Of a stretch of DNA of 64,000 nucleotides, positions 30,252-35,232 are shown piece by piece (position 1 is the stretch's first letter; each line of letters begins with the position of its first letter). The translations under genes and the position numbers were made by a program. Source of the stretch: Verrucomicrobiaceae bacterium (GTDB taxonomy: Bacteria; Verrucomicrobiota; Verrucomicrobiia; Verrucomicrobiales; Verrucomicrobiaceae); NCBI GenBank assembly GCA_016795485.1, contig JAEUHM010000041.1, positions 310,001 through 374,000 on the forward strand, read 5' to 3'. A model generated the notes under the pieces. It was given only the letters and a program-made list of their open reading frames with translations, ran no database searches and was not told the origin of the DNA.

Positions 30252-30674
30252 TTACACTGTGCGGCGCTTGCGCTTGACGTGAAGCTGGGCGGTGGAGCGC
30301 TGGATCATGGCCATGGTAGCGGCGATTTCATCATCGCTGCTGCCGTGGGCAGACTTGAGGTTCTCCAACGCGGCTTTTGCACGAGCAAGGGCTTCTTCCA
30401 CAGCTTTCTCGTCGATTGCATCGGCTTCGATGGCCATGTCGGTGAGAACGCGGGCGTGTTCGCCAGTGATTTCGACGAGGCCTTCACCAACGGCGAGGTC
30501 GGTGGTCTTGCCGCCTTTGGTGTAGCGCAACTCGCCGGGTTGAAGAGCTGAAACGAGCGGTGCGTGCGCGGGCAGGATGCCCATTTCACCCTCTGATCCA
30601 GGCAACACAACGGACTCCACCTGATCTGAGAAGATCCGGGCTTCAGGCGTGACGATTTCGAGTAGAAGGGGCAT
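30252..30674 (-). CDS. atpC: F1F0 ATP synthase subunit epsilon
   Basis: The 140-residue protein has the epsilon beta-sandwich (LLEIVTPEARIFSDQVESVVLPGSEGEMGILPAHAPLVSAL) and a C-terminal helical hairpin rich in Ala/Glu (EKAVEEALARAKAALENLKS). Epsilon links F1 to the c-ring and regulates ATP hydrolysis. It is last in the operon, 82 bp after atpD; that gap carries a stable stem-loop. The Lys/Arg-rich end (HVKRKRRTV) is typical of bacterial epsilon tails. Confidence 0.95.
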   Translation of the reverse strand: MPLLLEIVTPEARIFSDQVESVVLPGSEGEMGILPAHAPLVSALQPGELRYTKGGKTTDLAVGEGLVEITGEHARVLTDMAIEADAIDEKAVEEALARAKAALENLKSAHGSSDDEIAATMAMIQRSTAQLHVKRKRRTV

Positions 30675-30756: not shown

Positions 30757-32256
<1,500 letters not shown>

Positions 32257-32745
32257 TTAGAGGCGGACGAGTTTTGCGCGGTCTTGTTCGGGCACATCGG
32301 ACAGGGCCACGATGTGGAGTTGCTGATCATTTTGAGCGGCAGACGACAGGACCGGACCGCCTTCACTCACATGGGCGGACTTTGGCATCTTCCACATGGC
32401 ACCCGTGATAGGATCTACCACCACCATGCCGATAAGGCCACCCAACAAAAGATTGCCAAAATACCATGGCGAGAGGCCGGGAGACATGTCAGCCGAGCCA
32501 ATCTGACGTCCCTGACGATAGACGGTGAGCGTGTAAGTCTCACCGCGGAAGTATTGACGCTTGCCGGGCAGGGACACGATGGCAGGGGTGACTCCCTCAC
32601 GGACGATCACGCCACCGGAGTTAACAATCTTGAACGACAAACCCGAGGGTGTGGAGTCCACGCGAGTCCGCACAGGCATTTGCACGAAAGTTGCGCAACT
32701 GGAGACCAGGAGCACAAGAGCAAGAGCGGCGGTAAGCGTTTTCAT
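32257..32745 (-). CDS. Lipoprotein of unknown function inserted in the ATP synthase operon
   Basis: This 162-residue protein has a lipoprotein signal peptide with lipobox LVSS-Cys17. The mature part starts with a PEGA-like beta region (VRTRVDSTPSGLSFKIVN, REGVTPAIVSLPGK, GETYTLTVYRQG). It then has a hydrophobic motif WYFGNLLLGGLIGMVVVDPITGAM (about 94-117) of a kind seen in small envelope lipoproteins, and ends in a Gln/Asp-rich tail. It lies 23 bp after atpG and 42 bp before atpD on the same strand, so it is almost certainly in the atp transcript. It is not a known ATP synthase subunit. A role in assembly, or a simple insertion that uses a strong promoter, are the alternatives. Confidence 0.75.
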   Translation of the reverse strand: MKTLTAALALVLLVSSCATFVQMPVRTRVDSTPSGLSFKIVNSGGVIVREGVTPAIVSLPGKRQYFRGETYTLTVYRQGRQIGSADMSPGLSPWYFGNLLLGGLIGMVVVDPITGAMWKMPKSAHVSEGGPVLSSAAQNDQQLHIVALSDVPEQDRAKLVRL

Positions 32746-32768
32746 GGCGGATCGGCAGTTCAGCGTGG

Positions 32769-33662
32769 CTATTCAAGCGCCATCTTGGCAGTGGTGATCT
32801 CCAACAACTCGTTGGTGATGCTAGCTTGACGAAGTTTGTTGTACTCCAGGGTGAGATCTTTGATGATCTGCTTGGCGTTGTCGGTAGCGTTCTTCATGGC
32901 CACCATCCGCGCAGAGTGCTCAGAGGCGCGGGCCTCAAGCAGCATCTGGAACAAGGTATTGTTCACGTATTGGGGCAAAATGGATTCAAACACAGCCGCT
33001 GGATTTGGCTCAAAGGTGTACTCCGGCACATCAGTGCTGGTTTCCTTCACTTCCAGAGCGGAACCCATGCCTTCATAACTGCGCTTGCCACCGAGTTTGA
33101 CTTTGTCGACTGGCAACAGCTGCTCCGCCGTAGGAACGATGGTGACAGTGTTGATGAAGTTGTTGAACACTACGACCACTTTCTTGTAGTCGCCACTGCG
33201 GAACTTCTCCTGAGCGAAAACGCCAACCGGACGAGCTTCAGCAAACTTGGCGGGATCCTTCACCGGGAAATCAGCGATGACGTTCTTGCGCAAACGAGTC
33301 AGCGCCTGAGTGGCTTTTCTGCCGATGGTGACGTAGTCCACTTCACCTTCGAGATTGGCATTGAGGAGCTTCTTGAACAGGTTGGTGTTCAAGGCACCGC
33401 AAAGGCCCTTGTCACTGGCGATGACGATGCAAAGCGTCTTATCACCTTTGCCCTCGACGAAGTAGGGGTGAGAACCTTCCTCCGCCGCATCCCGAAGGGC
33501 GACGAGGATCTTGTTCATCAACTCGGCATAGGAACGGCCATTGGTGGCCAAGTCCTGAGCTTTCTTCATCTTGGCAGCCGCAACGAGCTGCATGGCCTTG
33601 GTGATTTGGGCCGTGCTTTTGACCGATTTGATTCGGCGGCGGATGTCGCGGGTGGAAGGCAT
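32769..33662 (-). CDS. atpG: F1F0 ATP synthase subunit gamma
   Basis: The 297-residue rotor subunit has the conserved N-terminal coiled coil (STRDIRRRIKSVKSTAQITKAMQLVAAAKMKKAQ), the central IVIASDKGLCGALN strand and the C-terminal helix (ASEHSARMVAMKNATDNAKQIIKDLTLEYNKLRQASITNELLEI). Gamma transmits rotation of the c-ring to the catalytic sites. It follows atpA after 40 bp. Confidence 0.97.
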   Translation of the reverse strand: MPSTRDIRRRIKSVKSTAQITKAMQLVAAAKMKKAQDLATNGRSYAELMNKILVALRDAAEEGSHPYFVEGKGDKTLCIVIASDKGLCGALNTNLFKKLLNANLEGEVDYVTIGRKATQALTRLRKNVIADFPVKDPAKFAEARPVGVFAQEKFRSGDYKKVVVVFNNFINTVTIVPTAEQLLPVDKVKLGGKRSYEGMGSALEVKETSTDVPEYTFEPNPAAVFESILPQYVNNTLFQMLLEARASEHSARMVAMKNATDNAKQIIKDLTLEYNKLRQASITNELLEITTAKMALE

Positions 33663-33702: not shown

Positions 33703-35232
33703 TTACTTCCAGCTGCTCTTGAAGTCTTCGAGAGCGGCTTTGATTTCGTCCTCGCACTTGTCGATGGCTTTTTCGTTACCGAGTTGCTCCAGAAGAGCGG
33801 CCTTGCGCGTGCCGAGGTAGTCCTCAAGCTTGGTTTGGCACTCCTTGATGCGATCAACGGCCACGTTATCCAAGTAACCCTTCTGCATGGCATACAGACT
33901 GATAACCATGATAGGAAGGCTCTTGGGCTGATATTGCTGCTGCTTGAAGAGCTCAACGATGCGCGCACCACGATCCAACTTGGCCTTGGTAGCAGCATCC
34001 AGGTCAGAACCGAACTGAGCGAACGCTGCAAGCTCACGGAACTGTGCCAAGTCGAGCTTGGTAGTGCCTGCCACTTTCTTCATGGCCTTGGTCTGTGCGG
34101 CGGAACCCACACGAGAAACGGAGAGACCTACGGAAATAGCAGGGCGGATACCTTGATAGAAGAGGTCGGTCTCAAGGAAGATCTGACCGTCAGTGATCGA
34201 GATCACGTTGGTAGGAATGTAAGCCGAGACGTCACCGGCTTGGGTCTCAATGATGGGCAGAGCGGTCAAAGAACCGCCACCGTAGCTCTCATTGACACGG
34301 GCGGAACGCTCAAGAAGACGACTATGGAGGTAGAAAACGTCTCCAGGATAAGCTTCACGACCGGAAGGACGCTTCAGAACGAGTGCAACCTGACGGTAAG
34401 CCACAGCTTGCTTGGAAAGGTCATCAAACACGATGAGCGCGTCCATTCCCTGATCCATGAACCACTCTCCAACGGCGCAACCAGTGTACGGAGCGAGGTA
34501 TTGGTTAACCGCGCTGTCAGAAGCCGAGGCGCTCACGATAACGGTGTATTCCATGGCACCAGCCTCTTCGAGAGTCTTAACCACGCGAGCAACGTTGGAC
34601 TGCTTCTGTCCCACGGCAACGTAGATACAATAGAGAGGCTTGTGGCCCTGAAGCTTGCCTTGCTCAGCAAGCTTGTTCTGCTGAGCTTGAGCAATGATGG
34701 TGTCCACGGCAATGGTGGTCTTACCCGTCGAGCGGTCACCGATGATCAACTCACGCTGTCCACGACCAATGGGAATCATTGCGTCGATCGGCATAATGCC
34801 GGTCTGCACTGGAACGGAAACCGACTTACGGGAAATAATACCAGGAGCAATCTTCTCTACAGGGTACTGAGCCTCGCCTTTGATCTCGCCTTTGCCATCA
34901 AGGGCCTGGCCCAGTGTGTTCACCACGCGTCCGAGGAGGCTTTTGCCAACAGGAACAGAAAGAAGACGACCCGTGGTGCGGCACTCATCGCCGGCCTTGA
35001 TGTTCTCACCAGAGCCAAGCAACACGCAACCGACCTCGGTTTCTTCAAGGTTGAGCGCGAGGCCATAGACACCGCCGGGGAACTCAATCATCTCGTTGAG
35101 CATCACGTCGGAAAGGCCTTCCACGCGTGCGGCACCGTCACCGATCTCACGAACGATGCCGACGTTGGACTTCGTCACGGCGGTCTTAAGGCCGGCGATC
35201 TGGGATTCGATCTCTTGGAGGATGTTGCTCAT
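33703..35232 (-). CDS. atpA: F1F0 ATP synthase subunit alpha
   Basis: The 509-residue non-catalytic hexamer subunit has the P-loop [15 protein letters not shown] (Ser where GDRQTGKT is usual), the [15 protein letters not shown] block, and the signature [22 protein letters not shown]. The N-terminus ([15 protein letters not shown]) is the delta-binding helix. It sits between atpH and atpG as in most bacterial operons. Confidence 0.98.

What the first reader, a model, noticed from the sequence alone, without database searches (positions are those of the whole stretch)
32257..32745. Unknown lipoprotein gene embedded between atpG and atpD
The atp operon has the standard order atpB-E-F-H-A-G-D-C except for a 162-residue lipoprotein between atpG and atpD, with only 23- and 42-bp gaps. 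It has a clear lipobox (Cys17), a PEGA-like region and a Gly-rich hydrophobic motif near 94-117. It could be an envelope factor co-produced with ATP synthase, or a recent insertion that exploits strong expression.
Basis: partly seen in the sequence, partly recalled or inferred. Interest (0 to 1): 0.6.

Follow-up and report, generated by a model that had tools for sequence, protein, structure and literature searches.

The report
Lipoprotein cargo inside ATP-synthase operon
Between two genes of the ATP-synthase operon this bacterium carries a small membrane-anchored protein, and a survey of about 100 relatives shows that exactly this gap, and no other gap in the operon, is repeatedly filled with unrelated accessory genes (several lipoproteins and a toxin-antitoxin pair).

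Summary
In detail: an intact 162-codon lipoprotein gene (32257-32745, minus strand) sits between atpG and atpD, with 23- and 42-bp spacers. It is not strain-specific. Homologues occupy the same junction in 14 surveyed genomes from two families of the order. They group as one lineage (93/94 support) apart from unlinked homologues. Yet most relatives, even one with about 95-97% identical flanking atpG/atpD ends, lack the gene. The junction is the larger finding. Of 100 Verrucomicrobiales operons measured, 18 carry a gene-sized insert at atpG-atpD. None of 590 other atp junctions carries an intact one. The cargo varies: this lipoprotein, DUF4410 lipoproteins, two further lipoprotein types, and YefM-YoeB toxin-antitoxin pairs. 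The protein has no accepted Pfam match. It has a transthyretin/PEGA-like beta-sandwich, an invariant hydrophobic Gly-rich segment and a short conserved C-terminus. It matches phage family phrog_6823. Viral relatives lie beside CI-like repressors, or in the P22 sieA-mnt interval. I conclude it is a moron-type envelope lipoprotein carried in a cargo slot and probably made from the atp transcript, not an ATP-synthase subunit. A protective, superinfection-exclusion-like role is inferred, not shown.

The parts
32257..32745 (-). lipoprotein gene (LP), 162 aa, phrog_6823-like / PEGA-like fold
32698..32745 (-). signal peptide, residues 1-16
   Evidence: sequence; helix 3-17 in model
32695..32697 (-). 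lipobox cysteine 17, invariant in 60 homologues; +2 residue Ala
32485..32670 (-). transthyretin/PEGA/CnaB-like beta-sandwich, residues 26-87
   Evidence: AlphaFold2 model, mostly pLDDT 86-97 over residues 21-90; VIA-align Z 5-7 to TTR/CnaB/pilin domains; PF08308 in 22/60 relatives
32395..32469 (-). hydrophobic Gly-rich segment PWYFGNLLLGGLIGMVVVDPITGAM, residues 93-117, family signature; helix 93-109
32260..32307 (-). conserved C-terminal motif, residues 147-162 (ALSDVPEQDRAKLVRL)
   Evidence: alignment A1, A3
32746..32768 (.). 23-bp spacer atpG-LP; no promoter/terminator-like site
32215..32256 (.). 42-bp spacer LP-atpD, degenerate period-7 array
   Evidence: period-7 in this junction class
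32769..33662 (-). atpG (gamma)
30757..32214 (-). atpD (beta)
33703..35232 (-). atpA (alpha)
30252..30674 (-). atpC (epsilon)

Best explanation
The gene is accessory cargo lodged in a recurrent insertion slot between atpG and atpD of the Verrucomicrobiales ATP-synthase operon. Its product is an exported lipoprotein of a widespread, uncharacterised family (phrog_6823-like): a lipid anchor at Cys17, a PEGA/transthyretin-like beta-sandwich, then a hydrophobic Gly-rich segment that probably docks on or in a membrane or oligomerises. It probably uses the strong, constitutive atp transcript for expression, without contributing to ATP synthase. Shown: the position, its conservation in 14 genomes, the slot's selective occupation by different cargo types, the family's presence in prophages next to lysogeny repressors. 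Inferred: co-transcription, envelope localisation, and a protective (superinfection-exclusion-like or surface-shielding) role, to which I give about 0.3 on its own.
For: 14 genomes with the gene at the same junction. Linked copies are one group (93/94; 94/88 for 13 of 14). Slot: 18/100 gene-sized inserts at atpG-atpD versus 0 intact of 590 other junctions, Fisher p about 2e-16 uncorrected for relatedness. Cargo differs: DUF4410 lipoproteins (PF14366, 2e-14 to 6e-19), YoeB (PF06769, 2e-38) plus YefM (PF02604, 2e-17), two further lipoprotein types. Occupancy is scattered on the atp gene tree (19 changes; shuffled mean 20.2), and one close pair (94.8% and 97.5% nt identity in the flanking 600 bp) differs in it. 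Homologues without atp linkage in Pseudomonas, Pasteurellaceae, Bacteroidota, plasmids and phages; 39 viral contigs, four read ones beside S24/HTH repressors; three Lederbergviruses carry it just before mnt, in the interval that holds sieA and orf59a in P22.
Against: The linked copies form one lineage tied to this site, which could also mean a function related to ATP synthase or an ancestral operon member lost many times. No transcription data. No PADLOC match. Chromosomal copies elsewhere have no consistent neighbours in the loci read, and no member with a known function was found. Cargo turnover by transfer versus loss is not resolved (f1 copies as one clade not rejected, p-AU 0.153).
Confidence: 0.55

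Rival explanations
1. LP is a lineage-specific accessory factor of ATP synthase (assembly, c-ring periplasmic cap, or coupling to the envelope), ancestral in the order and lost many times.
For: All linked copies are one group and sit at one site in two families; purifying selection; host-like composition.
Against: Absent from most relatives with otherwise normal operons; homologues are common in bacteria and prophages without atp linkage; unrelated lipoproteins and a toxin-antitoxin pair use the same slot; F1 subunits encoded on both sides are cytoplasmic whereas LP is exported.
Confidence: 0.2
2. The junction is simply the least harmful place for random insertions in the operon (neutral tolerance), and cargo identity has no functional meaning.
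For: Only this junction is occupied; cargo is diverse; presence changes between sister genomes.
Against: Cargo genes are co-oriented with the operon and intact in most cases; three lipoprotein types beside LP look like more than random genes would give (not tested formally); LP is under purifying selection.
Confidence: 0.2
3. The slot is filled by a site-specific mobile or repeat-driven mechanism linked to the period-7 / inverted-repeat spacers of the F1 junctions.
For: Spacers AG, GD and DC, but not BE, EF, FH, have lag-7 identity 0.43-0.44 against about 0.28; 20 of 28 GD spacers of 60-200 bp carry inverted repeats of 9 or more, 0 in shuffles; 23S_rRNA_IVP genes flanked by inverted heptamer arrays at GD/AG in two Opitutaceae-like operons.
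Against: LP itself is not flanked by inverted arrays; AG and DC have the arrays but no intact cargo within the order.
Confidence: 0.1

Closest known systems
phrog_6823 (phage epsilon34 gp15 and relatives), unknown function
   Same: N-terminal 126 residues match (E 8.1e-22); lipobox, beta-sandwich, Gly-rich segment; [quoted passage not shown]
   Different: The epsilon34-type phage members lack the C-terminal motif and lie in lysogenic-conversion regions, not in the atp operon
PEGA domain (Pfam PF08308)
   Same: Several family relatives match (best 6.8e-7); predicted TTR-like sandwich
   Different: The window protein itself scores no match; the family adds an invariant hydrophobic segment and C-terminus
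Superinfection-exclusion morons (P22 SieA, phi80/N15 Cor, TP-J34 Ltp lipoprotein)
   Same: Prophage location near repressors / in the P22 sieA-mnt interval; membrane-anchored
   Different: No sequence family match beyond the signal peptide (Cor E=0.23; PADLOC none); function untested
Extra gene between gamma and beta in the Rhodopseudomonas blastica atp operon (recalled from memory, Tybulewicz et al. 1984)
   Same: Same junction of the operon (from memory)
   Different: Not checked here; the paper was not found in the held library

Membership tests
phrog_6823-like lipoproteins | profile match over most of its length | tested here: met
   E 8.1e-22, residues 1-126 on profile 1-130/139
phrog_6823-like lipoproteins | lipobox plus conserved W/N/G/DP.TG segment | tested here: met
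   invariant columns in 60 homologues
PEGA domain PF08308 | score above gathering threshold | tested here: not met
   no hit for the window protein; relatives only
PEGA domain PF08308 | TTR/Ig-like beta-sandwich fold | tested here: inconclusive
   model residues 26-87 high confidence; PDB matches Z 5-7, no Foldseek E<=0.001
F1F0 ATP synthase subunit/accessory | conserved wherever the operon is | tested here: not met
   absent from most operons
F1F0 ATP synthase subunit/accessory | physical association with F1F0 | not testable with these tools
   needs co-purification
superinfection-exclusion protein | carried on prophages and expressed in lysogens | tested here: inconclusive
   relatives lie beside repressors or before mnt; expression not testable
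superinfection-exclusion protein | blocks phage infection | not testable with these tools
   needs a phage challenge

The most novel reading that the evidence does not exclude
The atpG-atpD junction of Verrucomicrobiales is a dedicated accessory-gene slot inside an essential operon, through which envelope-protective lipoproteins and toxin-antitoxin modules rotate, using the ATP-synthase transcript as a constitutive expression platform.
Probability: 0.35. Interest if true: 0.8.

Novelty: new variant of a known kind. Interest (0 to 1): 0.52.

Why it matters
Core housekeeping operons are usually treated as closed units. A single junction of the ATP-synthase operon that repeatedly takes up and loses lipoprotein and toxin-antitoxin genes would be a new type of small accessory-gene hotspot, and it gives a simple genome-wide test (which junctions of essential operons accept cargo, and what cargo). 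It also gives an uncharacterised, very widespread lipoprotein family a first set of functional hints.

Tried and rejected
Pfam, NCBIfam and PADLOC gave no family for the window protein. PDB sequence search gave nothing significant. Foldseek against PDB: no match at E<=0.001; the aligner's second look lists mainly TTR/Ig-like sandwiches at Z below 8; one viral model matched at 1.3e-10 (unnamed). Apparent inserts at other junctions were read by eye: EF in L236 and L251 is atpE itself picked wrongly, FH in L326 is atpF, DC in L287 (226 bp) holds only a 53-aa ORF, by eye a RelE-like toxin fragment. 'Present in only this strain' was rejected. The idea that the Roseibacillus copy is an independent occupation was suggested by the quick tree but not upheld by the careful ones. 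Epsilon34 gene 14 next to the homologue is not SieA by profile (phrog_5962). No Rfam family in the operon. Literature searches found no report of cargo at atpG-atpD.

Full report
Observation. The gene at 32257-32745 (minus) is real: 162 codons, ATG start, lipobox SSC with Cys17, 23 bp after atpG and 42 bp before atpD, in an otherwise standard atpB-E-F-H-A-G-D-C operon. It is single-copy in its genome. Its base composition matches the neighbouring atp genes, no promoter- or terminator-like site lies in either spacer, and linked homologue pairs show dN/dS of about 0.10-0.20 where it could be estimated.

Family. The protein matches no accepted Pfam or NCBIfam model but matches phrog_6823 over its first 126 residues (E 8.1e-22). 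An alignment of 60 homologues has invariant C17, P54, L59, W94, N98, G106, D111, P112, G115. Twenty-two of 60 members match the PEGA domain at E<=0.05, best 6.8e-7. The AlphaFold2 model (mean pLDDT 84.9) shows a signal helix, a high-confidence beta-sandwich at 26-87, a helix at 93-109 formed by the Gly-rich signature, and a less certain tail. Structure comparison gives transthyretin/CnaB-like sandwiches with Z up to 7.2, which only indicates a common arrangement. Homologues occur in Pseudomonas, Pasteurellaceae, Bacteroidota, Planctomycetota and others.

Position in relatives. In the window's own family, 28 of 28 fetched relatives in which the junction could be measured have only a 31-55-bp atpG-atpD spacer. 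A wider search found homologues between atpG and atpD in three other species of the family and in ten genomes of a second family of the order, 14 in all with the window. In the 26-row tree the linked copies form one group (93/94, 96% of bootstrap trees); a broader tree keeps 13 of 14 together at 94/88. Whether this reflects one ancient acquisition with many losses or transfer between relatives is open: holding the same-family copies together is not rejected (p-AU 0.153), but copies of the two families are mixed in one well-supported subgroup (97/97).

The slot. I fetched 100 operons of the phylum's order Verrucomicrobiales (order named from record titles of matching loci), nearly all chosen by their atpG hit and not by LP (the window, and G522 which was known to carry LP, are exceptions), and measured all junctions. 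Eighteen of 100 measurable atpG-atpD junctions hold 450-1100-bp inserts, 17 of them in the second family; no intact insert was found in 590 other junctions once four flagged cases were read. Fisher p is about 2e-16, but the genomes are related, so this is not a calibrated probability. Cargo: LP; DUF4410 lipoproteins; a 128-aa lipoprotein; a 106-aa lipoprotein; and YefM-YoeB. On a tree of atpA+G+D the occupied state needs 19 changes, against a shuffled mean of 20.2, so occupancy is as scattered as chance. In the closest pair (L249 with LP, L250 without; 94.8% and 97.5% nt identity in 600-bp flanks) the right spacer is shared, so the difference is a precise, recent gain or loss. Outside the order, two Opitutaceae-like operons carry 23S_rRNA_IVP genes at this junction, one of them also between atpA and atpG.

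Functional hints. Thirty-nine viral contigs encode homologues. In the ten read by eye, four have the gene next to or one gene away from a CI-like repressor (S24 peptidase and/or HTH domains), the usual place for prophage-expressed morons. In three Lederbergviruses the homologue lies just before mnt, in the interval that in P22 holds sieA and orf59a. The P22 SieA protein excludes superinfecting phages (PMC10883804). These are positional arguments only; no member of the family was found with a tested function.

Why this junction. Inference only: atpG encodes the single-copy gamma subunit and atpD the three-copy beta subunit, so atpD may have an independent, strong translation start that tolerates a gene in front of it, whereas other junctions may be translationally coupled. 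The period-7 spacers of the F1 junctions may also matter, but atpA-atpG and atpD-atpC have them too and carry no intact cargo.

Conclusion. The best reading is not an ATP-synthase factor but an accessory lipoprotein in a recurrent cargo slot, probably expressed from the atp transcript, with a protective envelope role as the leading but unproven guess.

Noticed in passing
window 32215-32256; atpA-atpG, atpG-atpD and atpD-atpC spacers of L232-L331: These three spacers, but not atpB-E, E-F, F-H, consist of degenerate period-7 arrays (lag-7 identity 0.43-0.44 against about 0.28); the longer ones (60-200 bp) often end in inverted repeats (20 of 28 at atpG-atpD). No paper on this was found.
   Followed up: partly
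L342 (atpA-atpG and atpG-atpD), L349 (atpG-atpD): 23S_rRNA_IVP (PF05635) genes flanked by inverted heptamer arrays; looks like an autonomous version of the short inverted-repeat spacers.
   Followed up: partly
L265, L266, L269, L277 (atpG-atpD): YefM-type antitoxin genes between atpG and atpD in four genomes; a YoeB frame is intact in L266 and L269.
   Followed up: partly
L038 and L101/L166: A second small lipoprotein gene (about 128-131 aa) lies next to LP homologues both inside and outside the atp operon, suggesting a two-gene module.
   Followed up: no
L069: The homologue in G435 lacks the conserved C-terminal motif, possibly early decay.
   Followed up: no
L287 atpD-atpC spacer: 53-codon ORF that looks like a RelE-type toxin fragment, perhaps the scar of a decayed insert.
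   Followed up: no
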